From Chytridium lagenaria (Eukaryota; Chytridiomycota; Chytridiomycetes; Chytridiales; Chytridiaceae), in contig JAHLKC010000052.1 of the NCBI GenBank assembly GCA_025449115.1, positions 62,001 through 126,000 of the forward strand: a stretch of 64,000 bases of DNA, given 5' to 3'. How positions within the stretch are numbered: the stretch's first letter is position 1; each line of letters starts with the position of its first letter. The notes beneath the pieces are model-generated. The model saw nothing but the letters and a program-made list of their open reading frames with translations, searched no databases and was not told the origin of the DNA. Shown in pieces: positions 33,674-59,783 of this stretch. The position numbers and the translations under genes are program-made.

Positions 33674-35295
33674 CCGCCATGAAATCTTCGAAGCAGTATC
33701 CTTTACTTAAGAGACGAGCAAGATTACGATATATCTTGAAGTACTGGAAGTAAGAAGACAGCCGAGACCAATTAGCAGTGAGTACACAAATAAGATGTCA
33801 ACAGCGAAGTCATATACATTAAATCTCAAGTTCGAAACTCCGAATTGGATGAAGATATCTCTTGCGATCCTTTAGAGATCTAATGATAAAAAAACTCGAA
33901 GATCGTTTCCTCCAACAATATTCGCATTCCACACCACATCAAGCCCGCCTTGCCTTCACAGCATTTTTTATAGAAACTAACTGAATGACAAGTACGCGCG
34001 TGTCGACCCTATCAAGGCAGAAATACTTGCGGTTTTATGGAGAGCTGATCCATATATCATTTGGTACGATGACCTCATTGTCATATAAGCGATGTCGGAA
34101 GTTCGGGCCTCTTTACAAATGATTTCTCTGGCAAGAATAGGTAACTGGAAATGATCTTTCTCGTCCCGTGAAGAGTCTTTGAGGGTTGATGATTTTCTCC
34201 AGAATAGTCTTTCAGGCCGTCTATCGTCAACGGCACTGAAAACAAAGCATTTTGTCTAATTTCGTTCTTTGACTTCCCAGTACGTGTCATATACACATCC
34301 CACCCAGCATTCCTCCCACAATCTATCAAAGAATATCCTCGCCAGGACGGACTTAGAGTGTAGATGGTTCAACGAAGACGTCAGAATCTTGAGATAAGCT
34401 TATGCAATAGGAGTTAATAAAGAGTAGCAATACAACTGATTGTTATAATGGAGGAGCCTTAAGGGAAGACAGTTTGCATCCATGGCTTGATGGTGATGGA
34501 TGCTTGATCTTGCTGTGTCTTATTTTGCTTTAGATGGGGGTGAAATATACATTTGTTTTTTCTTCTTCCTGTAAAAAGTATCGCTATATATTTGGTATCT
34601 AGAAACCCATCTATTACAGCGACATCGTATGTAAAGTATTCCGTACAAGTAAAATAAAAGGGCCAGAGGAGTTTGCAGCGGGAGCTCTTATGTGTCTTTC
34701 CCAACTTTGGCCACCTTTAAAAAGTAAAACAAGAACAAAAATAAAATTAACGCATGTCACGAAAGGGATCATGGCATACAAATGAAAGCCTGACAAAAGG
34801 AATAAACAATATCAAGAAAATATCCCCCCAAAGCAGAACTCCAAATGAGCAATGATGACGGCAGATTACAGTATCCTTGCGTCCACACGTGAATTGCGGA
34901 AACCTCTTAAGTTAAATGCTTGACAACAGACGGGTTGATCCACTTTTTTGACCTTATTTCTCCCCACAACTCTTTGAAGGTATTGCTCATCTGCTCTTTC
35001 ATCTTTTGGTAACGTCAACAGTGTGAAGAAAATGGAACTTTTTCATACCTCGTATGCCAACTTCGGATGAGGACGGTGACGACGGCTCACACCAAGATCA
35101 GTATCACATCAACCATTTGACTCTGCTTAAGAGATAAGCTCCGAATCTAAAATTCTGTTGATAACGCGAAAGTAAATAAGGACTACCTTTTAAAGCTGTA
35201 ATATTTAAAAATACTTCGAAGATCGCTAAAAAGATATCGGAGTTTCTAAACTCACGAGAGTCCAGCCAAATCCATGTAAGAAAATAGAGCGAGTG
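33674..35295. other. Intergenic, no gene recognised
   Basis: AT-rich; short frames only, none with conserved motifs. It separates the gene-dense left part from the repeat-rich right part. Decayed repeat sequence is possible: splice-like CTCAC and CTAAC motifs recur as in repeat B. Confidence 0.35.
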
Positions 35296-37020: not shown

Positions 37021-37299
37021 CGCCTTCGCGCATCAAAAAAAAAACCCCTATAAAACCGTAAACATGCAGAGAACTCCACAACCGAAAAAAATATGCAAAC
37101 AGCGACGACTTCAAACCCTCTCCAAAACCACGAACACTCAAAGGCAAAACAAGTTAAAAATAAAAATAAAAATGCAAAAAGTTTGCATCGAATGAATAAA
37201 CAGATAAATAAGAAAGAGAAGATATTAAAAAGGTGGAACATAATTATAATGAAGTTAAATATAGAATCGAAAGAAACGAAACTCAAAACCCAAACCCAC

Positions 37300-39590
37300 A
37301 CGCCACTAGCGACGCGCGTTTGGCCCCCAAAGCCTCTGAATCTTCCTGAGCCAGCGCATTGTGCGTCTAGCACATGCAGTTCGGAGATAAAGGGGAGTTG
37401 GGGCAAGCACGATGGCGGGCTCGGGTCGTGTGCCATCACAGGAAGTGCCTGCTGCACCTCCAGCTGGGAGTCTTCATTAACCCTAGGACGAGGGGCGGAG
37501 CGGTCAGAACTGCCACCGTCGTCTTCCTCGCCTATACAACAATAATTATGAGAAATATGAAAAAGTCAGGAAGACGTACGCTTCCTTTTAGATGATGAAG
37601 GTCTTGAAGCTTCATCACCGTTCTGCTCACTTTCGTCAGCCACTCTACGACGAGTAGCTGGACGGTCGGAAGAGTTGTCGTCGTCGTCATCCTGACCTAT
37701 ATAGAAATCATTATGATTAGATGAAAGAAGAATATGTTGAATTGTTCTTACGTTTCCTCCTGTTGGAAGAGGAAGGCTTTTGCGCTTCATCATCCATCTT
37801 CTCATTCTCATCATCATCACCATAGTCACTTTTCACAACATCTTCATCTTCCTTTTTCAGTCCTCTTTGAATCCTAAAGATCTCAATTTCATGAGTCGAC
37901 AAGCGCTCAGCTCGAGGGATGTCTAAAGTCGTATCAGAAACAACCTATCGCGTGAAGATCTCACCTCCCTCTGGAACAAATAGACCAAAAGCAGCCGATC
38001 GTGAGATCTTGTATTCGATAAACTGTTGGGGTGAGCACTTGGGAAAGCCCATCGCTTTCCTGGTAGCTGTCAAATGGTCATATTATGTTAAAAGTGTCTC
38101 ACAAGGTGATGGTGAAAGAATTAAATACAAACCTCTATCCTCGAAATCCACTTTGCGAAGCGCCAGCTCTGCAAGAAGGAAAGGATTAACTTTCTCTTGG
38201 TGTATCAAATACATACCTTCTTCAGTATCTATAGAGGTCAGAATCCAACTTATTTCGGCGTGTTCGCTTGAGTGGGTGTCGAGCCACTCCCTTCCTTCGA
38301 CAGTGTGGAAGTTGAAATCCGGCACCGCTGTAAAAAGATTAAAACCTACACGAGCACACTCAAGCCACTCACGTTCAGGTTGCATGTTTTCTTCTTCATC
38401 TTCGATGTCATCTTCAATGACTTCATTTTCGTACAATGTCGCCTCACTACTGACGTCATCTTCTCTCGCCGTTCTTTCTGCCGGTTGGGCCTGAATGTCT
38501 TCGATCTCACCGTCGCGCTCCAACTCTGTGGCCTCATTGATAGAGTCTCGCGAGTACAAAGTAGACGAGTCGTCATCCAAGTGATCAGCCAAGCCCTCCA
38601 CGGGCAGGGCTGCGACGACAGGCTCCGCGCCAGCTGGATGTACCACCTCCTCGGTAATAACTGGAGGAAGAGGCACGGGTGCTGCAGGGAGCCCTTCGTC
38701 GTTCCCGACAGCACTGTTTTGGTCCAGATCCATGTCAGGACTTGAAGCCCGTGTCGCACAGGTGCTTGAGGAAGCGTAGTCGCTAGCCACTGCGCCGACT
38801 GGAGCGGCGCCGAGCTGAATGGGCTCCTCGATCACCTGCTCGATCACGGGAATAGCTGTATGCGATATAAATGCATCAAAATGTTGAGTAAAAATAATAG
38901 CAGAGTAGACCGTATAAATAAAGAAAAGTAGAAGCGGAACGAATGGTGCGAATACTGTGGATGGGAATCACAACAAAAATGCACTTTGGGCCTATCAAAG
39001 CCCAACGGGTGAGAGGGTGGCAGGGAGCAACCCAGGTCAATATGTCACACAAAAAGTGGCGTGGAGAAGAGCTAAACAAAATGGAAAGGAAGCACGCCCA
39101 CCTTGTCCCTCGGCACCGACATCTGGAAAACGCCTTTCGGTAAAAACGACGCCACAGGCAGGAGTCTGGTACGCCTCCAAGTAATCCATGTACCCGTTGT
39201 GGAGAAGTTCTTGGAGAACCTTTGCAACCTGTGGTGGAAGAACGAATGTTTAGAACAAAAGAAAATATATCCATATGATGTGTTGAAGCAGTGCAGCTTA
39301 TGACAAAAGAAAGTATACTAATTGTGCGTAGAAGCTTACCGCTTTTCGGGTCTTTTCGACTTGTGGCTTGCGGTGATAGTCTTGCTTGTCAGCAAGGGTA
39401 AAGGTGACTCGAGAGCCACCGTCCTCTACAAGCAGGTCGCACTCAATTGTACGGAGGCAATGGTTAACGATGACTTCATGAGGCCTGCTGCCTCAAGCTC
39501 ATCAGCCCTTATCTCATCCGACATTAAGTCGTGGGATCTCGACGCGGAGGGCATCGTTGTTGACAACGTCTATACAGAAATGTTTGTTTA
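37300..39590 (-). CDS. Acidic/basic modular protein, family member A (unrecognised)
   Basis: This is a multi-exon minus-strand gene of unknown function. The N-terminal part reads HEVIVNHCLRTIECDLLVED, GGSRVTFTLADKQDYHRKP and, across an intron, QVAKVLQELLHNGYMDYLEA, then TPACGVVFTERRFPDVGAEG. After a long intron come AIPVIEQVIEEPIQLGAAP, an Asp/Glu-rich stretch (NEVIEDDIEDEEENMQPE), VPDFNFHTVEGREWLDTHS, ALRKVDFEDR, TRKAMGFPKCSPQQFIEYK and ERLSTHEIEIFRIQRGLKK. Two related exons follow, each acidic then Ser-rich and ending in KRKR (DDDDDNSSDRPATRRRV; EEDDGGSSDRSAPRPRV). Introns are 45-60 nt and mostly phase 1. The 5' end is uncertain: an acceptor at 39577 implies more exons upstream, possibly 39650-39805. 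One missing base near 39482 breaks the frame. The 3' end near 37300 runs into the flank shared with repeat B. Confidence 0.55.
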
Positions 39591-40138
39591 GGCAGAGATT
39601 TTCACTTGAAGAGTTAAAGAAAATTGTTGTTTTTCAAGGCAGTCCTTCAAATGCCTTCATATTTGTTCGGAAACAGTATATCTCGCATAACAGCTGAAGA
39701 TTCAAGACGTAAGAGGTATGGTATGTTCACACTTGGAAAGAAGTTGTCGCAATCGTGTTCATTTGCTGGAGGTGTTGATACGCTCAAAGATGCTGAAATG
39801 ATTAAGGCCAAATAATATAGATTATGATTCACAGGTCTTCAAAGAAGTGGGTAATTCAAATTGAATGAGGATGAAGTAACCGTATAAGATAATGATTCGA
39901 TTCCTGGCCATGGCAAAAATCCATCGGTACCGTGTCATCCTGGCATCAGCTTGGCGTACAGGAAGCTCAGACTTTGCCCCAAAATCCTCCATAAATTCTG
40001 CGAGTGGGATTGGAGAGAGTTCGAAAAGTGGCGTATGATTGAATGGAAAGATCCAGGACTGCCGACTGAGTAGTGCTTGAACTTCGATGGAGCCGTGCGG
40101 AAGTTTAAACCTTCTCGATAATAGGAAAATAAAGATGA
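39591..40138. other. Possible upstream exon(s) of gene A and spacer
   Basis: On the minus strand 39650-39805 is open (STPPANEHDCDNFFPSVN, then VMRDILFPNKYEG) behind an ATTTCAG acceptor, and could be an exon of gene A. The rest shows nothing recognisable. Confidence 0.3.
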
Positions 40139-43100
40139 TTAGTCGAGAACTTCGTGCAGCCTCGATGAAGATAATTTATCCAGTTCCACAAACCGGCTGA
40201 TAACATACTCGTTAATGTTAAGCTTGCGGTGATTTCTGATCAAAGATTCGTTCATCCATACGGTTGTGCTAGGAGCATCCACTTGAAGGGCAAACTTGAC
40301 TGCGAAATCACGAGACACTGCCAAACCACCCACATCTCGTGCGTGTCGACGAGTCGGGCGATTTAAGGTACAAGTTAAGAAATCCATCGGTGGTCATTAA
40401 ACAAGTCAAGCGAAAATTGCAACGTTAAGATAGCATGATTAATTATGAATGTTAAATTAGGGGGAAAGCTACTCATAAACAGACAACATAACATCGTACC
40501 TTGTCAGTAACATGTGTGTGCATAAGGTAACGGTATGCCGTGGGTTTCTTTTGAGTATTGTCGCGAAAAGGTACGCGGCGGACCCGAGTGTGCATAGTAT
40601 TAGAAAAATGCTGAAGCTCATTAGTAAAGTAGACGGCCCCAAAAAATATGACGTCTACGGAACAGCGCTCGGACTCCCTCCAATATCATCAGAAGTAAGA
40701 GTAGATGGTCGATGATCATCCTGATCCACCACAAGACCAGCCAGAAGTGAAGTCTGTCTCAAACGAATCCAGCAAGGCGGCCATACAACATTCCTTCCTT
40801 TTCCTCAATACATCACAATAGTCTGTATAAAGTGGAGTGATGACGATATCCTCATGCTCCACCATAGCATGTCCCACGTCCGATGGTCACAACTCCACCA
40901 CAACCGGATTTTAAGCCTCGCCATTCCAAACTAAAAAAGACCAAATTATACCTTTCAGAAAGATGCCGCTACATGATATTTCAAGACTTCGATATACGAT
41001 GCGTACAGGCGGTATCTAGTTCTATGCATGCCATAAGCAGGGGTGGTCTTTTTGTAAAAGAATTTGAAATTGGTAATTACTTGTACGAAACATCATTCAA
41101 ACCCGCATCCATCTGCATTGCGTACTTTCTCATCGATAACGGTGGGTCAGAGGTCACAGGGGTTGTGAATTACGTCACAAAAGGAAAACCTTTGGGATTA
41201 GCACCGCCATATTTGATGCGACATATACGTGATTCAAAAAAATGGCCACCGCATTCTTAATGGTCCCGTTTTTAAAAGAGTTTAATTCAAACGCAGTGTT
41301 ATTGCATACATTTTGGAGAAAAAAAATAAGAGTAAACCCCTTTGAAAAGCAACCAAAACAACCACTGTTTACAAATGAAGAGAACGAAAACTTGATAAAA
41401 TGATTATGTGAGAGAATAACAAAACACTTCAAAATAGAATGAACAACAGTCGTTTAATCAAAAGGTATATAAAGCAGTTAAACTCAAGCTACGAAGATAA
41501 TAAATTGTAAGAATGATACGTTAATAACACGTGTAAATAAAAAAGTGTCAACAAAACTAATCTCTAAAATATCCTGAAACCAAAAAAGCGCCGCCTTATA
41601 AGTGAAAAGGACGTCATGAATAGGCAGACCTTAAGATTCGGCAAGGCGCAAAACTTCAAGGCCAGGTGGGCAAAAATGCGTCGGAAAATCAGCGGCCGAG
41701 AAAATGCTAGTCTAGTTGGAACCACGTTCGTCATCGTAACCCGCTTACGCGAAAAACAACTTCTCACGCAGACGGCAAAAACTGAACATGGGCGAGGACA
41801 TCGTTCCAAAACTTTAGGACAGCACAAGTGTCGACGTTGACAGATTTTTCCTCATGAGCAAGATCTTATATACGCGAGGCAAGTGAGTAAGCAGTTTAAG
41901 CCTGAAGCTTAATAATCTATTGCCGAAAGAAAATACTATGAGGCTGTGAGCTGATATCCTTCTTCCCAGAACGATAAGAAAAGAAAAGAGAATAAATTTA
42001 TCGACATAAATACCTGGTTTAGCGAGATTGGAATTGCTACTTTGTGAGGTGGAATAAAGCAATTGGCCATTTAAATCGCTTCCTGTTCTTGACGCTGTGT
42101 AAGAGCTTGAAAAAAAAATATATGAAACAACATGAGCTTATGATTACGGAAAAAGCACACTAAGTAAAGCAAAGTTCATACATTATTTTCCATACACATT
42201 AAACGTTCTCCATCGTAGCATGGTCGCGAACGACACGCTTACTGGATGATGTTTCAAAAAATGATCAAAAAACTTACTTTCGTCAATATTCCATCTATGA
42301 TAATCCGGTAGCAAGGATTAAAGAGAAGTATCGGTTGATAGTTTTCCACGCAGAAAAGATATTATAAAATTCTCTTCAGTACAGCTGAAACATAAACAAA
42401 GAATAGACGATCTCTTCCTAATCTCACCTCAAATGTCACTCGAGTAAGTAATTCCTTCAGCAGCATCATCCCAAAAAATCAGACCCGCTATAACTTTTCA
42501 TCCGTATCTTGAGCATCGTTCAACGCAGAAACCTTTTTGGATGGACCGTGACAACGGGTGATCAAGGCCATTAAAGCGGTCTAAACCAATTTGATGGTCC
42601 TTGAATGCAGATTGAATGCATATTCAAGATAACATCAAGCCGATGAGGGAATCAAGACCGCATCGAACACCTCAGCACGTTTCAGCTTTTGGGTAGCCCC
42701 CGAAGTAAATCGGGCATTACTGATAAGGAGCCACAGGCAAGCATGTCAATTGCATTCTTCTGATCTTAAGTGTTGCAAGTTTTTTGAAAGGATGCTTGGA
42801 GAATTACAACCTGCGACCTGGGTGATGCTTGAACGATGTTTGCTCTCAAATGCAACGTCATTTTACTGAACCTTGCTGATGGATCACCGTAAACGAACTT
42901 TGGGATCGAATTCTGGCTCTAGACTATGCAATCACCACTTCGAGGACGATATCCTTGATGTGGATGCGGATGACATGCAAGCTCAGTGCACTGACTTTTA
43001 AAGAACTGCTAAGTTACCCTGACGGCGGCGTTCAAGCACATAAGCTGTCTTATCTCAATCGTCACTCATTTCGATCGCCATCGTTGTCAGGAGGGGTCTA

Positions 43101-44291
43101 GTTTATGTTATGATGGCGCCAGTAAAAGTTGACGGATATGATGTACAGAGGTTGCGGGAAGACAGCGTTTCATCATTAATGCGACTGTGCTGAATATCAA
43201 CTCTGCTCTATCTTTTATCTGTCAACGAATCTAGAATGTGCGTACCTATATTTTCAATATGTTCTTTATTTTTCTTTCTAACCCTCACATCTTTCTTCAC
43301 CAGCCTCCAAATATCTGATCTTCATCTGGATCCTCACCTCCCCACACGACGTGGTAATCGTCTTTTTTCGAATCGCCATTTTTTGCTCAAAGTTTTATAT
43401 CGATTGACTAGCGTGAAGGGATGCGCATTACCACCCGTTTCCTCAGTGTCATTTGTTAAGTCATGTAACTAAGCAACTCACCGCCAACTCCGCAGCCAGT
43501 GTCTAGTGCAAGTGAACAAGGACGATAAGCGAACCATTTTCGAATCTTAATCTGCATGAACCTGGGCACTATAACGACATGAAGTATATCACCTATTTCT
43601 CAGCTCTGCAATGAAGAAGGATTACTCCTTTAAAAAAGTTTCCGCCAAGCCGCGTTAACGGAGCAGACTTTTTCTCTCTGTCATGATGGATTCCACATGT
43701 GACGGTAAGCTTTGATTACCGTTTATACCATCACATTCAAGATTCGTCATTATGGGAAGAAAAGTGTTTTGAACGGTTATTTTGTTATATCGGTTTCATA
43801 TCAGATCCTTTCTCCCTACATTTGATTACCTTTCTTTTTTTTTTTCTCGTTACAATCAATTATGTTTGAATATTTTTTACCTCATAAGCCCGTTTTCTTT
43901 TTCAATGCCCTCATTTCTTTTCCATTCGATGACTGGATAGCCGCCACAGCTCTAATGATACGGATACTCGTCGAATGTTTTTCGACATGCCCTTTCAATC
44001 GAGTCTTCAGAAGATTTTTTTTGAGGGAACTTTTCATGAACGCTAAAACGACTCTTACCCTACAATTCATTATTTATGTTCTTCGTCTGATATTTCGATT
44101 GACGTCAGCCTTGTTTTGGCGCAGGTTTTTTCTTTTCTTTAGAAAGAATATTTCTGTAAAGGTTGTTTTTTAATGAACCAAAAAACGACCACAAAGTGAT
44201 TTCCAATAAACGTATGTATTTACAAAGGGAAGGGTAGGGGAATGTGGTAGATGTGGTTTAAATAAAGTTCCGCAGCTATAGCTCGACGAAA
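40139..44291 (+). repeat. Repeat E, copy 1 (about 4.2 kb)
   Basis: This is present again, inverted, at 60040-64000; matching positions sum to about 104,330. Identity is very high from 40328 to about 43490 and then falls to perhaps 75-80% up to 44291 (GTTCCGCAGCTATAGCTCGA). Only short frames are found: MNRQTLRFGKAQNFKARWAK near 41616, and MHAISRGGLFVK with LIDNGGSEVTG near 41030-41150 (both also in copy 2, slightly altered). None is a transposase or reverse transcriptase that I recognise. Splice-like borders occur, so a multi-exon gene cannot be excluded. The left limit is unknown because copy 2 is cut by the window edge. Confidence 0.8.
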
Positions 44292-44499
44292 CAACATAAC
44301 AAGGGATGACTATGAAAATGGGGATGATCCCCGTCGTTAACGTCCGTAGCGATTGAGGCGTGAATAGAGGCTGTGCAAGAAGGCGAGGAGTTTATACGGT
44401 GCTGCTTGTAAGCGACGGTGGAGGACGGGTATGAATGAATGTGAACGGTTCATATCAGGCTCAACGTTGTTTTGCGTTGCAATCTCCAGAAAAAAACTA

Positions 44500-46300
44500 A
44501 CGCGAGTTACCGGACTGTAAGAGGGTAGACAAAGCAAGTTCTTAGAGGGCAAGGTCATGTAGGGTGCTGAATTTCGAAAAACTAAAACAGGCGGTTAGTA
44601 TCGATAATTCGGACTAGACACATTGTACATACCACACGAATATCCAGAACCCGCCTTTATGCCGTGGATACTAACCGGATCGGCAGCATCCCTCCGGTGT
44701 CTCAATCGAAAGTTTGATTTTCGAGAGACAAATATGACCTACTTAATGTTATATTACGTGAAGAAATAAAACTGTTTACCGTGGTTGAATATTGCTGTAC
44801 TTCACAACGATCGCGTTGTTACAATATTGTCATACTTCTCTTGCCAGAATGACTTCCATATATAGATATGCGTACGCAATACATCAAATACTGCATTAAC
44901 CATTCACGGCACTGTGGCGAAACGAGATCCGAAACGAGATCAAGGCTGCAGTAGGATCACGTATAGCCTCGGTCCCTCAGGTACCCCGGCAGTGATTCAC
45001 AGCTCTATAATTGCATCATCCACAGATACCCTCTATACTTTCAAAGTTGATCGAGCCAGGTCTAAAGCTTGATGGAGCTGAAGATATTACAGATGTTAAT
45101 GGAATTGGATGCAACAAGCACTTACCAAAAGTAGCCTTAGACCTCATATTTTTAACCGTGGATGTCACTAAAATAGCGCTATCCCTCCGGTTGTTTCATC
45201 GGGAAATGAACTTTTTATCCTCGAGAAACCATGCTCGTCAACTGAAGTAACAACGCTGGTCAGAATAATGCAAAAAAAAAAAGTAAATAATATGAAGATA
45301 CCTTATGAAGTAAACAGGGCATCTTCTCTCCTTCAGCTTACACGAAAGCAGGCATAAATACTGATACCGCAGAGCTTCAGCTTGCTAGAATTACTAGAAA
45401 CAACAGTTCGTATAAAAAGAATTTGACTGAGTATACCTGTACTTTCTCAGTCCATTTGTCTGCCTTTACTATATGGCTCGCCGGAGAACGTTGATACTAA
45501 CCGCTGTTTTGTCAACACTGAATCTATAATTTAACTAACAAGAAGTAAGTAATCCATAACTCCGTCACATACTCACCACGTCATACTAAAATTGCGGATC
45601 ACAACAATGTTCATACTGCCCCTCTAAAAAGCCTCATGACGACATCTACATCGACCACCCTCAAACATCAACATACTTGAAACTAATGACGCTGTACATG
45701 AGAAAAAAATATTACAACAAATTACACAGTCAAAACCCTCACCTCTATTACTCTAAATACCTATCTTAATTGATAACATTGAAAAATACCAGCCCCCTTC
45801 AACATCAAGACATTTGTACAGACAAATCAAAACCCTCTAACACAATTAGTGATCAGACAATCATATCACATACCTTAAGCTATATGCAAGTCATGGCTAC
45901 GCTTTTAGCCGTGTCGGAAATGGCGAAGTCCAAAACCAACGTACGACTAAAACGCATCACCGTCTCTAAAGTATTCCCCTCAAAACTCGCCGATCATCCC
46001 ACCACAACTTAACCAAAAGAACTAAGAAACTCAACCCACATCTGGCCTTTGAAAAAACCCGGCGCAGCAAACCAAATAAAAAAACCCGTAAAATCCCATC
46101 CATAACACCAAAAAGGAAATTCGCATAACCCTATCGCGAAAAAATCAAAATAAGCGCAGCAAAATTCTGCAACAGAATGAATGGCCCAAGAACGAAACCT
46201 CCCAAAAAGATAAAGCCCCCAACATGAAGCCGGTGAATAAGACGGAAAAAGGAAAGTCATAAATCTGAATTACAAAGTAATAACTAAATCAAATGGATAA
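44500..46300 (+). repeat. Repeat B, copy 2
   Basis: This is the direct repeat of 35296-37020, directly following repeat E copy 1. It has an extra GAAACGAGATC duplication near 44919-44940 and an insertion around 45603-45632 compared with copy 1. It reaches to within about 70 bp of the stop codon of gene B. No intact coding is seen. Confidence 0.8.
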
Positions 46301-46364
46301 AGAAAACGCCTCCCTCGCCCATCAGACTCGCACCCCTGTTGTGCAAGCCTCATAATCATAATAT

Positions 46365-49300
46365 CTACCGACGGCGAATTCGCCGGGTAGACCTCTCCTC
46401 CTCCTCGTCGTTGTCGGCACCATCTAAAACGCAGTAAGATTCTAGAAATAGAGAGAAGAAGCATACATTCATCCCGCCCCCTTTTGTAAGGTCTAGGGAC
46501 AACGTTGGAATTCACAACCATCTCATTTTCAGTCTCATCATCACCAAAAGTCGAAGTCGCATCGTCGCTCATCTCTTCCCTAGCCTCAAACGCGCTTGCA
46601 CCCACACCCATGTAGTAAACCTCTGCTGCCGCCGCCACATCAATATTCTTCCAGCTTTGATCCCTTCTCGAAGATTGAACACGAGGAACATGCCTCCTAA
46701 ACTCTGTGCCTGTGGCTTTTGGGCCGCCATGCTCTCTAATGGGTCCGGTTCCAAGAGAACTCTCTGCGAAATAAAGTTATATAAAGACAAAATGGCGAAT
46801 CCATACTTCTCAAGCCGCGTGGAGCAATAGTAGGAATGACGGGTGAGTAACGAACACGAACAGCTTGTCGGATTTCGGATGCGGGGCGAGGATTCCGCAC
46901 CAAGAGAGAATTGGAGTTCCTTGGGGGAGGGGCGGTAACGTCGTTATTGGCGCTGTTCAAGACTTCGCCGCTAGCAACACAAGGAACGACACCAGCTGAA
47001 GTCATCGCAAACCTTTCCTTCTCCTTCTCCTCTTGGTTATCATCTTTAACAATCTTATTGTCATCTTAAAGGCCCTTATTATTACACTAGACACCTAACA
47101 TGCACTTACCACTTGTCTCGGACTTTTTCTCGACAACAAGCTCATCGTCTGTTTCAAAATACGGGTCTGTATAAATCTGTCAAAAAACTAATCCATGAAA
47201 ACTCTCCTACCTTCATCCTTCTTGTCAAGCTCGCCGCGCACCAATTGAAGAATAGGATCCTCTTCATCAGAGGAATCTACCAAAACATCAGAATATCAAC
47301 TCAAAAACCCCTCTCTTACCTGCATCCGCGTTGCACATGTTCGCTCTAGCACGCTCGCGGTCATCCTCATCGTTACTCACGTACACTTTAAAACTATTTA
47401 ACGCAGTCCAGCAACAAAACCTCACCCTCGCGGCTACCTTCATTCATTATATAAAGTAACTTTAACACGCTCATCTTCTTCCTCAGAATCAGCCACATAC
47501 TCTTTTAAAATCATTAAAGGAGGACAAAAATATAGCCTTACCCTCATCCTCAGGGTACCCCTCATTAGCGCGTTCACCCTCTTCATCCGACGAAATATCT
47601 GTGATCATCAATTTTCATCAAGCTAATCTAGACTCACATTCGTCCACATTGACTGTGTCAGAAGCGGGCATGTAAATGTCTTCCTCGACATCGTCTTCAA
47701 TATCATCTACAATGAAATGATTAGTGCCTTTAAAAACCTCGATTCTCAGGTCACCTTCATCCTCCATTCCCTCGCCATCAAAAACAACCATAGGCTCCAC
47801 TGAATAGCAATATCAGCTAAAAAATCAACCTCTACACCAACTCACCTTCCTCCTCCTCATCGTCTTCGCGCAAAACTTCTCTCTCCTCAACGGCTACAAA
47901 GACGCCATCAGCACAAAGGAAAACAGGCAACAACTCACCTTCCTCCTCGTTCTCATCACCTTCACTTTCAGTCTCGACCCTCTTATCGAAATCTACATAT
48001 ACGTTATCAGCATAGAAAGAGCCCTCCGCAACTTACCATCATCCTCCATCTCCTCCTCTTCGACACTCACAAAGTCTATTTAACGGTTATAAGTACCAAA
48101 TCACACGTGCACCAGCTTACCTTCATCCTCAACATCCTGTTGAACGTCATCTTCAGTGTCCTCAACATCTACGAGACCATTATCAACGTCAAACCATCCT
48201 GCAGCAACTCACCCTCGTTCTCCATCTCCTCGTCGTCACGCTCACTCTCAACCACCCTCTCATCTACAAAAACCCATCAGCTCCAGAAACAACATTGCAA
48301 CAGCTCACCATCATCCTCCATCTCCTCGTTATCACGCTCACTCTCCACATCACTCTCACTTTCCACAACCCCTTCATCTACAAGAACGCCATCAGCTCCA
48401 GAAAACACATTGCGGCAACTCACCATCATCCTCCGTCTCCTCGTTATCACGCTCACTCTCCACATCACTCTCACTTTCCACAACCCCTTCATCTACAAAA
48501 AACGCCATCAGCTCCAGAAAACAACATTGCAGCAACTCACCCTCGTTTTCAGTCCCCTCGTCATCACACTCACTCTCAACCACCCTCTCATCTACAAAAC
48601 CCGCCATCAGATCTAAAAACAGCATTGTAGCAACTCACCATCATCCTCCATCTCCTCCTCATCACGCTCACTCTCCACATCACGCTCACTCTCAACCACC
48701 CTCTCATCTACAAAAAACGACATCAGCTTCACAAAACAACATTGCAGCAACTCACCATCATCCTCCATCTCTTCTTCCTTGACCACAATCGACTCAACTT
48801 CTATGAAATCACCATTACCACCAAATCAATAATGCATCAACTTGCCTATCTCAACGTCGTCCTCACGCTCATCTTCAACTTTACAAAAAACTTTGTTAGC
48901 ATTCAAAAATTCTGCACTTATCCACCTTCATCCTCCGAAGGCTCTTCAAACATATCAACCTCATCCTCATCATCTATGAAATCATCAACACCATGAATGC
49001 CATCTAAATCCTACCTCCCTCCACCTGCTCCCCCTCAGTCTCATCCTCAATGACATCATCTAATATGCGTCAGCACTACAGGGGGAAAAAGGAAAAGCCA
49101 CCCAAACTTACTTTTTTCCTCTTCATCCTCCTCGTCATTGTCGGAAAGGGTCTCGTCTACACATCAGTTAAAAATCAGTAATGTGGGGGAAAACTGTACT
49201 GTGGCTCAAATCATCGTCAGACAATGAAGTCACATCATGTCGTCCCACGGCATACATGGTGCAATCACTTTCGTCACCCTGAGACTCCACATCATTCTCA

Positions 49301-49698
49301 GCTCCCATCCACCTCTCTACATAGAATCATTATCAACACGAAAACACATCAGCAAAACAAACCCTTACTTTTTTTCTCAAACCACACCACTTCACAATCC
49401 CAGTAATCTTCACTCATCTTTCCATCCTTTGCTGCCATCGTCTTCAACTCCTTTTTCACTTCATAGTCCCCCCTATCTAAGATACCTTGAATCTGATCGA
49501 CGATCTATTTCACGTTAGTAGAAACACCCTAAAAAACCAACCCACCATAAGGATCGTCTCATCATGATGCTCCGCGAATATCTTAATACGACCCGTATTA
49601 GGGTCCACCACAATAGAACTCCCAGTCACTTTAGTGAACAAAACCATCAACAACTCGTTAACAACACGACCCGCAGAAGTCGCAGCTGTTGAAGCCAT
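46365..49698 (-). CDS. Acidic modular protein with about 28 tiny exons, family member B (unrecognised)
   Basis: From the ATG at 49698 the protein starts MASTAATSAGRVVNELLMVL, then GSSIVVDPNTGRIKIFAEHH and, over an intron, IVDQIQGILDRGDYEVKKEL and YWDCEVVWFEKK. From about 49160 to 47110 follows a series of exons of 36-75 nt, separated by introns of 43-50 nt with GTGAGT/GTAAGT donors, a conserved GCTGATG near the acceptor and TAG ends. Nearly all introns are phase 1, so each exon is a whole number of codons and splits at the same codon position. The exons encode Glu/Asp/Ser/Val peptides such as DERVVESERDVESERDEE or DEGVVESESDVESERDNE. The end is less acidic (PVIPTIAPRGL, RRHVPRVQSS, VVPRPYKRGRDE) and stops with RSTRRIRRR at 46365. 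I estimate about 700 residues, extremely acidic, with a basic tip. Nucleolar or chromatin chaperone roles are common for such composition, but there is no direct evidence. Confidence 0.65.
48309..48492 (-). repeat. Recently duplicated exon pair within gene B
   Basis: The exons at 48309-48377 and 48424-48492 are both 69 nt and differ by one base (Met versus Thr codon near the end). The 46-nt intron between them and the intron on the next side are also alike, which shows that an exon-plus-intron unit of about 115 bp was copied as a whole. Neighbouring exons at 48212-48262, 48541-48592 and 48643-48711 are older relatives. Confidence 0.8.
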
Positions 49699-51640: not shown

Positions 51641-52518
51641 AGTAGTGTTCATGGAAGCCGGTGTCCAACTCCCCCATAATGCTGAGTAGGTGAAACCGGC
51701 ACAGTGAGATTCGGCACGAATTCGCAAGATTCGGACGAGAGGTATTCCCTATGGACGGGTTCCTCGCCCACAGAGGGGCTAGCAGGGGGTGTAGGTTGTT
51801 GTTGTTGAGGAGTGTGATGGTTTGAAAGAGGGGTTGAGGGGTGGAGGGGATGAGAGAACGGTGAGGTGGGAGACGGGATGTGGAGGTAGATCGTTGACGA
51901 AGGAGTTTGGGACGGGAGGGGGAGGGGAAGATTGAGGAGTTGGAGGGAAGAAGGGGAAGAGTCTGTTCGTGGACGGGATGAGATCGGGAGACACGACGGA
52001 CAAGTTTTGAGGCAAATGACATGGAGGTTGGTTGGGATGAGGAGGAGCCTCCGACACCCATGAGTGCGGCGTCACCCATGACGGATTGGGTTTGAGGGCG
52101 AGGGAAGGGAGGGGTTGAGTTGGGGTTTGAGGGTTGACGGACGGGACCGGAGGCTGTTTTGCGGAGGTTGCGTTGGTGGTTGTTGGGGGAGTCGCCGTCA
52201 AAGTTGTAGGGGTTTGTGAGGTTGGTTGTGGAGCGGGCATGTGGGGGACGTTGATGGGTTGGTGAGAAGGATGCTGTTGTGGTTGATGCTGTGGTGGTGG
52301 TGTTGGGGTGTTGTTGTTGGGGGGTATGCTGGTGAGGGTGATGATGCGGTCCACCAACTCAAAGGTCCACCAGCACTCATAGGTCCACCAGCACTCATAG
52401 GTCCGGCACTCATAGGTCCACCAGCACTCATAGGCCGGCACCATGGGCCCAGCGTTCACAGATGTGCCGGTATTACCACGCCGCCTCAACGACCCACGAA
52501 GGCGGTTCCCAACATTCA
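51641..52518 (-). other. Proline-rich open frame downstream of the STK32-like kinase
   Basis: On the minus strand two overlapping frames are Pro/Ser/Thr/His-rich (PPNNNTPTPPPQHQPQQHP; PPHPVSHLTVLSSPP). They could be a disordered C-terminal extension of the kinase reached by a frame change near 52515, or the 3' UTR. The composition is coding-like but no domain is present. Confidence 0.3.
52364..52440. repeat. Minisatellite, 18-bp unit
   Basis: Four to five copies of GGTCCACCAGCACTCATA, one of them shortened by 6 bp, inside the proline-rich open stretch. In one minus-strand frame it encodes repeats of MSAGGP. Confidence 0.8.
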
Positions 52519-54594
52519 TCAACAAATTATCAACAATCCCGGATACTTTTCATAAACGGTAGCATCGAAATTCCTAAAATGCTCATCGATAAACTGCAAA
52601 TCCACGCAATCCGTTCCTTGACACTCATATCCCTATACTTTTGGCATTGGAACCATCGCAGGTGGGAGAGGGATCGATTGCCCCCTCCATGGGTGCTGGT
52701 GGTCACCGATGCTTCGGGGGTAGCCGCACTACGGTGAATGAGGTCGGTGCTGGCTGGAGTTGCTGGATGGAGGGAAAGGGAGAGGAGGCTGGGGAGGCGA
52801 GAGGCGGCTGCGACTGCTGCCGGTGATTGCGGCGTTGCGCACGTGGTTTTCTTTTTGCGAGGACGGTACTGAGAGGGTTTCTTCCAAAAGGAGTTCTTCG
52901 AGGTCGTAGGTGGCGTCAAAGTTGGGACGATCGCGCTGGCGAAAAGATGAAGTTAGTGATTTGGCTATTGTAATATATCGAGACATGACGAAAAAGATAC
53001 TCACGTCAGGCACAACAGAGGCTTGATGGCCTTCCCACCAACCGCACCCCAATCCATCCCTGCAAACCAAGGATGCGAGAAATTCCTCCTCTCCCAACGC
53101 TCCACACCAAGTCGTCGTGCAGGATCCCGTTCTAAAAGCCCCGAATATAAAAGCATGGCCTTCAGGACTGAGAAGCACTGGACTGCGATTGACAAGACTG
53201 GTTGGAGGGAAAACAAGGTCTTCGTGAAGGATGGAATGAGTGACAGCGTCGTTGGTTTGACCTCGAAAGGGACGCTGAGGGGAGAGATAGTCAGTAAAAA
53301 TGTTGGGAGGGAAAGGATGAATACTTTCCGTAAAGAAGTTCGTAGAGGACGATGCCAAGACTCCACCAGTCGATTTGCCAAAGGTATCCTTGTCCAAAAA
53401 GATCTCGGGTGCTGAAAAGTTGAATAGGTAACATTGAAAAAAATATATCAGCAAAAAACAGTATGAATGGGAAAAAAAAAAGAAAGTCTCCACGTCATAT
53501 AAACAACGTACCCATGTAAGCATGTGTTCCAGAATGGGACTTTAACGTCTTTCTCTCCGCATAATTTACCGCGATATTAAAATCAGTCAAATGCGCATGT
53601 CCCTCGGTATCCAAAAGCACGTTATCAGGCTTCAAATCCCTATGCACAATATTCTTTTGATGCAAATACGCAGTCGCCGCCGAGATCTCTGCCGCCAAAA
53701 GTCTCACTGCAGGTTCAGTGAATCCCCCAATTCGATCAAGATGATACCGCAAATCGCCACCCATCATCAAATCCAGCACCATAAACATGTTTTCGTCGTC
53801 TTGAAAGGCGAAACGGAGGTTGACGATGAGGGGGTGCGAGATTTCTTCAAGGATGGCACGTTCGCGGAAAATGTTTTGGATGGCACGCATTCGGACACAT
53901 TGAAGTTTGTTGATGTATTTAAGGGCGTAGAGCTTCTTGGTGTCGCGTTTCTCAACGATGCGGACCTGTATGTATGTATGTGTGAGTGTTGAGTTGGATA
54001 AAGGGCATAAATCAGAATGTAAGAAGATGCGCCATATACCGGCAGAATATAAAAAAAAATATAAAAAAAAGGAAAATAAAAATAACAATAAACAAGAGGT
54101 CATTCTCGGTTAATAGCGCAGAAGAGCAAAACAGATGAACTAAATAAATAAATAAATAAATAAATAAAAAGAATAACTATACGCCCTTGTACTACATTGG
54201 ACGCACAGAGAGAAAACCAAAACTCAAAATAAATAAATAAATTTGAAGAATAATAATAAATATAGTTCTGTGGATGAATACAGGAGATGGAAGAATTGGG
54301 AAGTAGTGTGTGTGAAGTAAATAGGATTTTACCTTGCCGAAAGCACCTCTTCCCACGCATCGGAGGAGGTTGAAATGCCGTAGTTCAACTGATGATGGAG
54401 GTGGAAAGAAAAGAATGACCGTCAGACCAAAGTAGAGTGCATGCATGGCATGAGAGGGTGGGGAGAGGGGGTATATCCCATTGCCAATGATAATGACATG
54501 ACGAATGGTGTGTGAGAAAGAAAGAGAGAGAGGGTGCAATGCTCACCCTCGCCGTTATAGTCTATAGGTTCTCCCTTCCAAATGTATTCCCCAT
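52519..54594 (-). CDS. STK32/YANK-type serine/threonine kinase (AGC group), N-myristoylation motif
   Basis: This AGC-group kinase of the YANK (STK32) family starts at ATG 54594 with MGNTFGRE, a good N-myristoylation signal as in animal STK32. Then come PIDYNGE, VELRHFNLLRCVGRGAFGK (glycine loop), VEKRDTKKLYALKYINK (catalytic Lys) and FRERAILEEISHPLIVNLRF. FMVLDLMMGGDLRYHLDRIG, IVHRDLKPDNVLLD, HAHLTDFNIAV (DFN in place of DFG, diagnostic of this family) and APEIFLDKDTFGK follow. DWWSLGIVLYELLYG, FRGQTNDAVTHSILHEDLVF, LERDPARRLGVE and NFDATYDLEELLLEE come next, ending DEHFRNFDATVYEKYPG with a TGA at 52519. Introns are at about 54332-53967, 53510-53415, 53329-53276 and 53004-52940. One-base frame breaks occur near 54567, 53374, 53185 and before the C terminus. 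The substrate is unknown for the family. Confidence 0.87.
54140..54168. repeat. (AAAT)n microsatellite
   Basis: Seven or so AAAT units inside the first large intron of the STK32-like gene; a shorter run lies at 54229-54242. Confidence 0.85.
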
Positions 54595-56014
54595 GTCTCT
54601 CTTTAACCTTGCTCAACAAGGAAAAAAGCAGAGGTAATCGTAGTTGATAATGTTGATCGCTTTTATCCTCTGAAAAAGTCCTCTCCCTATGTATGTATAG
54701 CTTTCTAGTTTTTGTTCGTCCTTTCTTTTCGTCCTTTGTATGTCAAACTGATCAGGATGGAGGGGATAGGTAGATGGGTAGTGTGAGAGAGTGAGTTGTA
54801 GTCGTTGGATGGATAAAGATGGATGGATGGAGATGATGGAGATGGACGGATGGACTGATGATGGATGGATGATGGAGAGGGTTGAAGAAAAAAGTATAAA
54901 TAAGAATAAAAGTAAAATGGATTCAGACAGCCAAGTAACAAGAAAGACGTTTCAAAAGTGTTTTTTGCATGCAACAAACAGGGTAATAATATTTAATACA
55001 TAACATAGTGGGGTGGGGGCTTTCCCATTATTATTATTATTAATCAAATGTTTAGAAAGAAAATGGGTAAAATCTTACTCCATGCGAGCAAGGGGGGGGG
55101 GAGGGGTGAGGGTTGGCTGGCTGGCTGGCTGGGTTGCGTCATTAAATTATTTATTTTGAAAATAATAAATATTATGAAACTTGAAGGTAGTACAGTCAAA
55201 GGGCCACGTTTATTATTATATTAATTATTTATTATTTTAAATAAAATAATAGTAATATTTAAAAGGAATGGTCCATGACGTACGTAATAGTATGCTTGCG
55301 GCAAAAAGTGTCTTGTTAATAGAAAGTGTGTGGCGCTATTTATTACTAATATTATTACCCTAATACAGCCCTAATACAAATGGGTAATTGATGTAAAATA
55401 AATAAATAAAGGCGAGTTTATGGGGTATTAATTAAAGTCTGACGTTTAGTTTATAGAGCCTTCGGGCTGTTTGTAATTAGCACCGGGTGGAAAAGGCAAC
55501 GACCTTTTTTCTTGTCCGGCGCTGAAGCTATCTCCAACAATAAAGACTGCAAGCTCAAGATTTTGTGGTTGATTTCCATACGTCCCAAAGTTCTGTTTAA
55601 TGAGCAAATAGCCCCTTTTTATACTAAATAAAAAGAACAGAGACATGAAGACATGAAGACGGCTTGCATTCTTGGATGCTTGCCACTCTCTGCGGCCATC
55701 CATCCATTCAAGTAAATATGTCAAATGGTGGTTATTTATTCAAAAGTTAATTAAAAGTAAACAAGAATGGCAAATATAAATATACCAAGAAAAGAAGAAT
55801 AATTTAGAATAATATAATTGAATACCGTGGTATAGATTAAATATAATTCCATGGAATGAATTGTCAATATGCACTTTAGCAATGGAATTGTCAGTAATTT
55901 TTGAAAGGAAGGTTCAAGGCAGGCGTTCATCAGTCGGGTCGGAATGTTTTGTCCAACTAAATTATTCTTGAAATATATTCTGGACAATATCCGATAAAAC
56001 CATACCTTGGATTC
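54595..56014. other. AT-rich intergenic region with simple repeats
   Basis: The kinase promoter side has GATGGATGG/GATGGA runs at 54806-54880. A (GGCT)n run lies at 55114-55133 next to a G run (55092-55101). From 55140 to 55440 there is very AT-rich sequence (ATTATTAATTATTTATT types). On the minus strand 55446-55700 has an open stretch of about 90 residues without motifs. No RNA gene seen. Confidence 0.4.
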
Positions 56015-57187
56015 TTGGATTCTTGGGTTCTTGGGTTGAAACAGTATAAAACCATCATCATCGCCATAGCATCTGCTTCATTCCCACTTGGATTCCATCT
56101 CCTCATCTGCATTGCATTCAACGTCGCCTCCTACCTTGTTACCATCAATGGTGAGTTCATTCGGATTCAATATTGGAATGGACATTTCAAACCATCTTGC
56201 TTCATCATCTAGTTTTTTTATCCTTGTGTTGACTGTGTCTCTTTAGGCTGCCCCTTGGGAAGAAAACGAGAGTCTCTCTGACCTTTCAAAGTAAGCATCG
56301 TCTGCTTGTCTCAAAAAACTGCCGCATGACGTCTTTTTCTCAAGAGCTTTGTACCAAAAAGCATACTAACATCCTTCATCAAAGAGAAGAGGCCATCATC
56401 GCCTATGTCCTCGCCAACTCTACAAAGGGTGACCCCGAATCTGTCGTTAAAGCCTTTGACGATTTCGGCTACAAGCATAAATGGTTTATGGCTGTTGGAG
56501 ACGTCAAGGGCAAGATTGTCGAAGAGGTCATCACATCCAACCCTCCTAAAACTATGGCTGAGATTGGTGGTACATTGGGTACAGTGCTGTGAGGTTTGGG
56601 CGTCACCTTGCGACCGCTGGAGGAAAGTACATTAGCTTTGAGTTTGCACAGGAGTATGCCAATCTTGCGCAGAAGGCTGTGGATCAGGCGGGGTTGACAG
56701 ACGTGGTGACGATTGTTGTTGGATCGTTTGATCAAAAGTATGCTCAATTAAAGGAGCAGTTTGGGCTTGACAGTGTTGATGTGAGTATTCCCTTCTTTCT
56801 CACTTTGTTGTTGGGCGACGCATCTAAAGACTGAATGTCCTTTGTCCCTTTTTATTTAAAACAGATTTGGTTCATTGACCACGTCAAGAACCTCTACCTC
56901 AGCGACTACAAGCTCATTGAAGCCAAAAAGCTCATCCACTCTGTAAGAATTCCATCCTCATCTTTCATACTTCTAAACACCCCTTCTTCCCACCCCAGGG
57001 TACCATCATCATTGCCGACAATGTCATCAAACCCGGCGCTCCCGACTACCTCGACTACGTCTCTGTCAACCTCCCTGCTGTTCCCGGCGTTGAGCGATCA
57101 ACACTTATCAAGTCACATAAGCTTATTATGACAACGTTGGAATACGCTGATGTTGAGGATGCGATTTCTGTTTCTGTCATTGCTTGA
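56015..57187 (+). CDS. Catechol O-methyltransferase-like enzyme with N-terminal membrane anchor
   Basis: This is a SAM-dependent catechol O-methyltransferase. Core motifs in order: HQREEAIIAYVLANSTKGDP, FGYKHKWFMAVGDVKGKIVE, PKTMAEIGG then YIGYSAVRFGRHL (SAM site), GGKYISFEFAQEYANLAQKA and VVTIVVGSFDQ. After an intron IWFIDHVKNLYLSDYKLIE gives the DH of the Mg site, and after another GTIIIADNVIKPGAPDYLDY gives the Asp-Asn metal ligands. It stops at 57187 after AISVSVIA. Introns are at about 56780-56864 and 56943-56998. A one-base loss near 56570 (between GG and YIG) breaks the frame. Upstream, 56055-56145 encodes a hydrophobic segment (FHLLICIAFNVASYL) linked by an intron to APWEENESLSDLS, like the anchor of membrane-bound COMT. 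The start is uncertain: no ATG is in frame near 56015. Confidence 0.85.
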
Positions 57188-57979
57188 TGACATTTTTTTG
57201 TTATATTTTTCATCTTAAGGGTGTCCTTTTGCCCAACTTTCACTCATACGCTTGGGGTGTTTTTTTTCTTTATGGCGAGACTAAGTTGTGTCGGTTAAAT
57301 ATTTCATTTTTTTTACTTTGAGACTACATGTATAAACTCATAAAATATCAGATCTTGTAGAATTGGATTTCCAAGTCTTCATCTCTTCACCTCTATTTAC
57401 TATTGCATAACGTGGCATACTCTATAAAGACCAACTGGATTTTACTAAACAGGATGATATATTGTCATATGTGAAAAAAAACGCTGATTCGTCAAATTAT
57501 AATGTTGATTCGGTATGTGTTTGAGGATACCACACAACGACGCAACAAAAACGCACCGGATTCACTGCGATTTCACTTGCGTTTTCGCTTAGATTCAAGA
57601 CGACGTTTCAACGAAGCGGCAAGATTCCTACTCGATTGATCCACAAAGCATTGTTTTGTATTTTTTTTCTTCGTGGTGCACTGACACGGCGCGGAGGGTT
57701 AGTTCGCTAATTCTAGCGACTTTCTCCGGTTCAACGCTTTGATTGATTCTTGGTTTTTATCCCTCCGTTCTCATATCTCTCGCGCCAACTGTAACAGCAG
57801 TGATAGAGACGAGCATGGGATCTTTTGTTCCCCGGTATTGAATCACACCACTTAAAAACCGACATCATGGGACGCAGCTAACTCTTTCAGAACTCCTTCC
57901 TTATTCACGCATCCACCTTCCTCGCCATTTCCCTAAAAGAAACAAAACAAGAGCGTCAATCGCACAGCAAGAAAATCAG
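57188..57979. other. Intergenic
   Basis: About 0.8 kb with T runs after the COMT stop (57194-57215, 57260-57270, 57306-57316). No coding. The right part should hold the promoter and true 5' end of the next gene. Confidence 0.4.
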
Positions 57980-59783
57980 TTGATCCCTGCACCAAAAAAA
58001 AAAAAAACAACCAAAGTCGCGCCAAAAAAACAACCTCCCCACACACCCATCAACCAGGAAAAACAAAAAAGGAAACCATCACCATCCTTCCAAACGTCAA
58101 AACCCCCCAAAAAATGCAATACTGGTCAGAAACGACCTCAAGATGGAGCAGAGGCTCAAAAAACCGACCCCAACCATGTTCATTGTGGTGGTGTGTTTAT
58201 GGACAAACTCGTCAACTCCCTTATGACTCTTACGGGTTGTAAACCTATTGTCAGAGCCGGTCAAAAACTCATCTTGGCTCCTGAACTTGAGAACATTGAT
58301 GTTCAACAGCTTGATATCGTCCATCGACTCCATTATGAGGTGCGAGGAGAGCTGCGTTTTTTTGGGTTTCATTGTTTCATGCTGACCTGTCCCACTTTTT
58401 GACAGGTATTGATGGCTGTGCAGGGGGTTATTGAGAAGGGAGAAGGGTGCTCGCAGGTCAGGATTCAGAAGGGGAACCGAAGAGTTAAAGTGTTATCGTT
58501 TAGCATGGTGGACCCTAAAAAAGGTAGGTTATCATTCCATCTCCACTTGCGCGTCATCCAGCCCTATCCTTACAACCCGTACTATACAACAGGCCCTATT
58601 TTCCCCGTCAAAGCCAGGACTCCATCCTTTGAGCAACGTATGATAGCCCTTGAAGAAGAACAAGAAAGCAAGTGTTGTACCCTTTTCATCGCTAACCCCT
58701 TTCTAGTGGCTGAAGAAGAAGCCCGGTACAACGACATGTTGAACCATGACTCTGACAATGAACACCGTTTCTCAATGTCTCCGAATTCTTTGACCTCGTC
58801 GTCGACAGCTGACTTGGACCCAACTACCTCTCCAGAGGATTCCTCTATCTCGACCCAAAATTCCAAACCCCTCGTCGTCGATCCCACAACCTCCTGTAAG
58901 ATCATAGAGCAGAACGTTGGATCAGGTACTGCGCCGCCCATCATCGCTTACAAACAGCGCGTGAACTCTTTTTTGGAGAACGCGCAAATCCCTGTCAAGT
59001 CCGTTATGACCCCGTCCTCCACCGTCCATTACAAGAGCGCGAGAACGCATTCCTGGAGATTGCAAAGAAAAACATCGCTGAGCCGGTTCCGAACGCATCA
59101 CGTTCATCACACTCCTCCATCGTTGCTTACAAGCAACACCGCATGAACTCCTCGCCTTCTTCCACAGTCTTGAATCACACCTCCATCGCTATGGACTTCA
59201 ACGACGGGACGGCAAAAATATCACCACACCTTTAATAACGCGAAAGATTGGTAAATGTCCCATCTTTGCTCATATCTATGTTCGTCACCGCCCCTCGTTC
59301 CCCAACATAGTCAACACCTTTTATGATATCATCGTCTAAAACCCCCATTTTCAGCATGTTCCCCCACCATACCCGAAAGAATCATTGCGAAAAGATCTCT
59401 TGCTTCAGGTGACTTTCCAAAAACACGACGCAGTAATTAACGTGCTGATTTTTTGGCGCAGATCGTGTCGTTCGGAGTTTTGGGTGTAATGCAGTTGCGT
59501 CCCAGACGTCTAGCGTTTTTGAATTTTTAAAGAATGAGTCGGATATTACGAAAGGGAAGAGAAGGAGGGATGGTAGGTTACTTCACCTTTGACCCTTCCA
59601 ATTTATGATGTTGTAGATGAAGTTGAGGTGGATGCTGAGATCAAGTCAATGCATGTGAAGAGAAAGAGGAATGGTATCGTGTCTGACGGGTTCGACTCTT
59701 TTTGCTGACTTTTTATAGTCGTTGAGGTTTTGAAAAAGGATGGTGATGAGACGCGTTCCACCATCCGTCGCAGGATTTTTTAA
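57980..59783 (+). CDS. Acidic/basic modular protein, family member C (unrecognised)
   Basis: This is a multi-exon gene of unknown function. A Lys/Pro-rich N terminus (PAPKKKKTTKVAPKKQPPH, next to a run of 14 A that may hide an error) leads to FMDKLVNSLMTLTGCKPIVR, GQKLILAPELENIDVQQLDI, VHRLHYE and, across an intron (58339-58405), VLMAVQGVIEKGEGCSQVRI. Later exons are Ser/Thr-rich and acidic (NDMLNHDSDNEHRFSMSPNS). Two related pieces share IIAYKQ / IVAYKQ. Further exons give SSVFEFLKNESDITKGKRRR, DEVEVDAEIKSMHVKRKRN and VVEVLKKDGDETRSTIRRRI. They are separated by phase-1 introns and end at TAA 59781-59783. A frame change lies near 59035-59050, and the start is not an ATG as read. The N-terminal module resembles those of the genes at 37.3-39.6 and 46.4-49.7 kb. 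Confidence 0.5.

What the first reader, a model, noticed from the sequence alone, without database searches (positions are those of the whole stretch)
37300..59783. A possible undescribed three-member gene family with a shared N-terminal module and modular acidic/basic exons
Genes at 37.3-39.6 (A), 46.4-49.7 (B) and 58.0-59.8 kb (C) each begin with a similar short module. B has VVNELLMVLFTKVTGSS, IVVDPNTGRIKIFAEHHD and IVDQIQGILDRGDYE. A has IVNHCLRTIECDLLVEDGG, SRVTFTLADKQD and VAKVLQELLHNGYMDY. C has LVNSLMTLTGCKPIVRAGQ, KLILAPELEN and VLMAVQGVIEKGEG. The common pattern is V-N-x3-L, a Gly-turn hairpin, then V-x-x-hydrophobic-Q-x-hydrophobic-hydrophobic-x-x-G. In all three, short phase-1 exons follow that encode acidic/Ser-rich pieces and end in Arg/Lys-rich tips (KRKR, RRIRRR, RRRI). 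I know of no named family with this architecture. The similarity was judged by eye and is moderate.
Basis: partly seen in the sequence, partly recalled or inferred. Interest (0 to 1): 0.8.

Follow-up and report, generated by a model that had tools for sequence, protein, structure and literature searches.

The report
Chytrid orphan genes with duplicated mini-exons
Three neighbouring genes of unknown function in the chytrid fungus Chytridium lagenaria share an unusual build (one early intron, then strings of short exchangeable exons for acidic and basic protein pieces) and may be distant relatives, although their protein sequences alone cannot prove it.

Summary
The window is Chytridium lagenaria. 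(1) The modular phase-1 exons are real. A blind scan of the contig at the strictest setting returned 7 symmetric short-exon chains; 6 lie in A, B, C or A', a second copy of A. B carries tandem exon+intron copies with synonymous excess in phase 1 only (pS 0.36, pN 0.08). (2) The shared N-terminal module is weakly supported. Exon similarity ranks among chance matches; two-member profiles do not recover the third. All three have a phase-0 intron just before the same helix motif; from that anchor the downstream halves of A, B and C are near-best matches of each other among 931 junctions, while the upstream V-N/Gly-hairpin half is not, except weakly A-C. In A that half is doubtful anyway: the deposited model BC829DRAFT_444040 reads another frame there. 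No match above cut-off in Pfam, NCBIfam or PDB; protein searches returned only this contig's products. Best reading: a local, fast-diverging group of nuclear-type acidic/basic disordered proteins whose tails grow by mini-exon duplication. Function is inferred only.

The parts
37286..39554 (-). Gene A (deposited as BC829DRAFT_444040, P0001): 11 exons in the deposited model; exon 3 (39228-39102) begins with the helix VAKVLQELLHNG directly after a phase-0 intron; then six phase-1 exons 38855-37580 with acidic/Ser parts and KR tips
39340..39492 (-).
46365..49698 (-). Gene B: module exons 49698-49546 and 49504-49369 separated by a 41-nt phase-0 intron, then about 22 mostly small exons read in phase 1 to a stop at 46367-46365 (C-terminus RSTRRIRRR). 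My model; the last splice (donor 46466) and the stop are a hand reading, the script itself ran on to 46270. No deposited protein of 355-1130 aa was found by the B query
48213..48707 (-). Five tandem exon copies in B (69, 51, 69, 69, 51 nt) with 44-48-nt introns; synonymous excess between copies in phase 1 only
58199..59780 (+). Gene C (deposited as BC829DRAFT_394748, P0003): module exons 58199-58339 and 58406-58523 around a phase-0 intron; phase-1 exons 58593-58667, 59355-59408, 59462-59572, 59617-59673; last exon 59719-59780 enters in phase 1; three middle exons of the deposited model (58707-59023, 59044-59166, 59247-59250) break the phase-1 run
35289..36982 (.). R1, repeat 3' of A without a convincing ORF, 94-95% identical to R2
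44502..46311 (.). R2, the same repeat, starting just 3' of B; three matches found in the genome, all on this contig
44330..44492 (-). Fragment of the C gene (80% identical to 59050-59208) next to R2
34435..44302 (.). Left arm of a long inverted duplication; right arm 60027-69959, running beyond the window end, holds A'

Best explanation
A, B and C (plus A', a second copy of A) are orphan genes known so far only from Chytridium lagenaria, probably old local paralogues that have diverged so far that mainly gene structure still shows the kinship: a phase-0 intron inside a helix, a second exon of about 40 codons ending in phase 1, then symmetric phase-1 exons. The proteins look nuclear and largely disordered: a small N-terminal module (guessed: helix plus strands) followed by acidic/Ser pieces with Lys/Arg clusters. 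The likely way it works: the module binds a partner; the basic clusters act as nuclear import or nucleic-acid contacts; the acidic tail binds basic partners such as histones or ribosomal proteins. Because most tail exons start and end in phase 1, they can be duplicated, lost or skipped without breaking the frame, so tail length can change quickly, in evolution and possibly by alternative splicing. Shown: exon phases in models, tandem exon duplication, selection on the B exon copies, charge. Inferred: kinship, nuclear place, binding, splicing choice.
For: Phase-0 intron at the same place in A, B and C. Intron-anchored comparison of the 14 residues downstream, 931 candidate phase-0 junctions on the contig: from B the best non-self hit is C (28; next an unrelated 15, then A 12); from C the best is B (28; next an unrelated 13, then A 10 in a tie); from A, leaving out A', B is first (12) and C ties next (10) with two unrelated ones. 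With gapped extension on both sides the top non-self hit is C from A, C from B and B from C; B is fifth from A, A is fifth from B and third from C (A, A' and other junctions of the query gene left out). Of 394716 junction pairs (889 of 931 junctions; duplicated arm and two repeat arrays left out) 22 reach 28. Blind scan: 6 of 7 symmetric exon chains fall in A, A', B, C, all six in phase 1; at the loosest setting the longest are B 9, A 3, A' 3 exons. B exon copies, three pairs summed: pS 0.358, pN 0.083 in phase 1; 0.101/0.126 and 0.132/0.127 in phases 0 and 2. A and B are followed by the same repeat R. Charge: B model 33% D/E, pI 4.05; A 22%, pI 4.39; basic clusters in all three. Three other gene models of the window have mixed phases (3, 4 and 5 of 12 introns in phases 0, 1, 2).
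Against: No significant similarity without the intron anchor. The upstream half of the module has no anchored likeness between B and C (score 1; ranks 456 and 404 of 931) or A and B (ranks 199 and 347); only A-C is slightly high (14; ranks 16 and 24). C is not acidic overall (12.7% D/E, pI 8.85). R may have been copied independently of the genes. Phase 1 was imposed on the B model after exon 2, and the exons tested come from models read in phase 1, so their being open in phase 1 (28 of 28) is by construction; what adds is that phases 0 and 2 are not open throughout. A' is a recent copy of A and adds no independent case. No expression, localisation or binding data. On the second check I lowered this confidence a little because of the upstream-half result.
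Confidence: 0.42

Rival explanations
1. Unrelated orphan genes with convergent build. Acidic stretches are made of GAN codons, and exons tend to end in G before GT, so introns in acidic sequence fall naturally in phase 1 (G|AT, G|AA). Tandem growth of such stretches gives phase-1 mini-exons in any acidic gene, and the module likeness is chance picked by eye.
For: No similarity without the anchor; upstream half of the module without anchored likeness for B-C; tblastx between B and A (first 20 rows seen) shows acidic low-complexity, R and weak chance-level matches; B-C-level pairs also occur by chance in the contig.
Against: Phase-1 runs also cover non-acidic exons of A and C; the phase-0 intron position and exon-2 length agree in all three; B and C are each other's best anchored match.
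Confidence: 0.38
2. Partly decayed genes: A' and perhaps A and C are pseudogenes in a duplicated region, so part of the reader's pattern is read from broken frames.
For: A' differs from A by several single-base indels in exons; the deposited A' model is shorter and spliced differently; the deposited C model needs a 20-nt intron and a 4-nt exon; A's module frame has no ATG.
Against: B exon copies show purifying selection; the single-base indels may be consensus errors of the assembly.
Confidence: 0.12
3. Host- or conflict-related fast-evolving genes, by analogy with bicycle or micro-exon genes (effectors) or other genes under conflict.
For: Orphan status, local duplication, short exons and loss of sequence likeness with kept gene structure are features described for bicycle genes (PMC9168663, abstract and introduction read).
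Against: By crude hydropathy no signal-like N-terminus in A or C and only a modest stretch in B; basic clusters suggest a nuclear place; the B copies show purifying, not positive, selection.
Confidence: 0.05

Closest known systems
Bicycle genes of aphids (PMC9168663, abstract and introduction read)
   Same: Orphan proteins, fast divergence, many small exons, kinship visible in gene structure more than in sequence
   Different: 476 bicycle genes in one aphid, many with signal sequences and CYC motifs; here three genes plus one copy, no signal-like N-terminus by crude hydropathy, acidic/basic tails
Schistosome micro-exon genes (MEG; PMC10526429, start of abstract seen in the listing)
   Same: Runs of short exons (listing: 3-81 bp); here 24-69 nt in most of the B tail
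   Different: MEG introns are long (listing: up to 5 kbp) and MEG proteins are secreted; here most B introns are 39-52 nt and no secretion signal was seen
Acidic nuclear proteins and histone chaperones with acidic tails and NLS (recalled, no call)
   Same: Acidic runs beside Lys/Arg clusters
   Different: No profile match above cut-off to any family in the libraries searched

Membership tests
One family A-B-C | Sequence similarity of the N-terminal modules beyond chance, without anchor | tested here: not met
One family A-B-C | Shared intron position and phase in the module | tested here: met
   Phase 0 before VAKVLQ / IVDQIQ / VLMAVQ
One family A-B-C | Mutual best matches from the intron anchor | tested here: inconclusive
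   Downstream half: B-C mutual best, A's pairs between first and fifth non-self rank; upstream half: no support for B-C or A-B
One family A-B-C | Same predicted fold | tested here: inconclusive
   Deposited A and C proteins only, mean pLDDT 38.8 and 41.2, too low to compare; B not sent
One family A-B-C | Phase-1 symmetric acidic/basic exons joined to the module | tested here: met
   In gene models only; transcripts not available
Bicycle genes | Signal peptide (many members) | tested here: not met
   Crude hydropathy only
Bicycle genes | Two CYC motifs (many members) | not tested
   No motif scan was run; 4-7 cysteines per protein
Schistosome MEG | Series of short exons (listing); that they are symmetric is recalled | tested here: met
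   B
Schistosome MEG | Secreted product, long introns | tested here: not met
   Introns mostly 39-52 nt; no signal-like N-terminus by crude hydropathy
Any Pfam, NCBIfam or PDB family | Profile match above cut-off or PDB sequence match at E up to 0.001 | tested here: not met
   sub-threshold rows only; of B the N-terminal 135 aa and a C-terminal 162-aa part were scanned in Pfam, not the acidic array

The most novel reading that the evidence does not exclude
A chytrid-specific gene family whose members keep only their gene structure: a small module split by one old phase-0 intron, and a tail that is rebuilt by duplicating, losing and perhaps alternatively splicing phase-1 acidic/basic mini-exons, lying in and beside a 10-kb inverted duplication whose arms look homogenised. 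It would be a fungal counterpart, arisen independently, of bicycle and micro-exon genes, with nuclear instead of secreted products.
Probability: 0.3. Interest if true: 0.6.

Novelty: new variant of a known kind. Interest (0 to 1): 0.37.

Why it matters
If the kinship holds, this is a case in a fungus of genes whose homology survives in intron positions and phases after the sequence has faded, and of a disordered acidic tail growing by tandem duplication of symmetric mini-exons. It would warn that some chytrid 'orphans' may be hidden paralogues, and it gives a simple splicing experiment. If it does not hold, it still shows that such exon runs can arise repeatedly in acidic genes.

Tried and rejected
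A profile from all three modules over the 236000 of 236579 contig bases held found no fourth member at E below 0.8. Protein database: B query residues 1-100, 58 candidates, none with E up to 10; A query, only the 7997 candidates sharing most words scored, hits P0001 and P0002; C query, 442 candidates, hit P0003; candidates were limited by length. Viral contigs: no relative confirmed for P0003, P0001 or the B module. Rfam and tRNA scans of the window: 0. The idea that R is a transposon was dropped: three matches only, all on this contig, no convincing ORF. The idea that A starts further upstream (open exons 40387-39833, minus) was left open: the splice path appears in two of three script settings with weak signals, no Pfam match. 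Five other repeat stretches downstream that I translated (81-100 kb) have stops in their frames and were not read as exon runs. No fold search was run, because both models were poor.

Literature, search listings only unless said; 'chytridiomycota' with 'exon duplication' gave 0 papers; of PMC9168663 the abstract and introduction were read. This is not proof that nothing is in print.
Full report
Source and gene models. The window is C52:62001-126000 of a 42-Mb genome. Protein records from a contig of the same length (236579) name Chytridium lagenaria: P0001 (BC829DRAFT_444040, gene A), P0002 (BC829DRAFT_417863, A') and P0003 (BC829DRAFT_394748, gene C) (lineage). B was not found as a deposited protein: 58 candidates of fitting length, none with E up to 10. 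I built splice models with a simple dynamic-programming script and mapped the deposited A and C proteins back to the DNA.

What is in the sequence. B and C carry the quoted peptides in good exons. In B the first intron is 41 nt with donor GTGGGT, a CTAAC branch-like site and acceptor TAG, phase 0. In C it is 66 nt, phase 0, in both my model and the deposited one. In A the intron before VAKVLQ is 111 nt, phase 0, in both models. Codon usage is mixed. I therefore count only the second half of A's module as reasonably secure.

Is the module shared? Without the intron as anchor, no. Smith-Waterman against shuffles: p 0.22, 0.12, 0.04. Exon-wise ranks among 7469 segments: 36-4363. Profiles from two members do not find the third; the best right hit was B's second exon at rank 17, E 21. 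With the intron as anchor the downstream half changes. The 14 residues after the junction give ungapped shuffle p of 0.004 (A-B), 0.016 (A-C) and 0 of 20000 (B-C). Among 931 candidate phase-0 junctions on the contig, B and C are each other's best non-self match (28; the next are unrelated, 15 from B and 13 from C), and A follows at 12 and 10. With gapped extension on both sides C is the first non-self hit of A, and B is fifth once A and A' are left out; from B, A is fifth, from C third, leaving out other junctions of the query gene. Pairs at 28 or more number 22 of 394716; most look like repeated sequence, but at least two others look like chance. So the B-C match is rare for a pre-chosen pair and unremarkable if one may choose freely. 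I judge kinship of B and C likelier than not, and A open.

Phase-1 exons. A scan that knows nothing of the finding, looking for short introns separated by open exons of length divisible by three, returned seven chains on 236 kb, both strands, at the strictest setting: five exons, two exons and one exon in B, two each in A' and C, one in A, and one single exon elsewhere; the six in these genes are phase 1, the other phase 2. Three Markov sequences of contig length gave 1, 0 and 3 single-exon chains, the list there being capped at 3. At looser settings 4 of 6, 4 of 7 and 4 of 12 chains of two or more exons lie in these genes, and the longest is always in B (5, 9 and 9 exons); Markov sequences of twice that total gave 1, 2 and 15 chains of two and none longer. 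A' is a copy of A and not an independent case. The scan breaks ties between phases 0 and 1 against phase 0, so I counted open phases separately: phase 1 is open in 18 of 18 B, 6 of 6 A and 4 of 4 C exons, phase 0 in 13, 3 and 1, phase 2 in 0, 1 and 1. These exons come from models read in phase 1, so the phase-1 count is by construction; the gain is that no other phase is open throughout. I left out four of B's 22 tail exons, A's first three and last two exons, and C's two module exons, last exon and three middle exons; those three middle exons of the deposited C model break the phase-1 run. In B, 48236-48771 is a tandem repeat of exon plus intron. Exon copies are 69 or 51 nt long and differ by substitutions and an 18-nt block; introns are 44-48 nt and vary by single bases. 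Synonymous excess is seen in phase 1 only (pS 0.358, pN 0.083, three pairs summed, two of which share a copy); the fourth pair, nearly identical, has one nonsynonymous and no synonymous change. So the array is very probably coding and constrained.

Neighbourhood. 34435-44302 is an inverted copy of 60027-69959. Identity per 250 bases is about 63-81% near both ends and mostly 94-100% inside, with dips to 88-89%, as gene conversion between arms could give (inference). The right arm holds A'. Repeat R follows A, B and A', and a piece of C lies beside R2. This shows repeated local duplication around the genes in question.

What it may do. No domain or relative above cut-off was found. The composition suggests nuclear acidic/basic proteins; A and B are acidic, C is not. 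The AlphaFold models are too poor to use. The mechanism in the best explanation is therefore inferred from composition and exon phase alone.

Verdict. A real and curious gene architecture; the family claim is plausible; the function is unknown in fact and only proposed here. Moderate interest.

Noticed in passing
34435-44302 and 60027-69959 (beyond window end): Long inverted duplication, about 10-kb arms, spacer about 15 kb, identity about 63-81% near the ends and mostly 94-100% inside, as if arms were homogenised.
   Followed up: partly
window coordinates 64845 to about 67000 (C52:126845 onward): Second copy of gene A (A'), nearly identical but with several single-base indels in exons; pseudogene or consensus errors.
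   Followed up: partly
35289-36982, 44502-46311, 67329-69121: Repeat R, three matches found in the genome, each 3' of A, B or A'; no convincing ORF.
   Followed up: partly
39833-40387 (minus): Two open, protein-like exons directly upstream of A; either a separate small gene or a 5' extension of A. No Pfam match.
   Followed up: partly
58900-59200 (plus): By eye, gene C holds an internal repeat around a YKQR-N-S/A motif; the deposited model crosses this stretch with a 20-nt intron.
   Followed up: no
11474-12226 (plus); 53498-54103 (minus): GTP cyclohydrolase N-terminal domain and protein kinase: the two stretches with Pfam matches above cut-off among the 20 ORFs or pieces scanned.
   Followed up: no
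86687-88596 (window coordinates, beyond the end): Satellite-like tandem array of about 172-bp units with stops in its frames.
   Followed up: no
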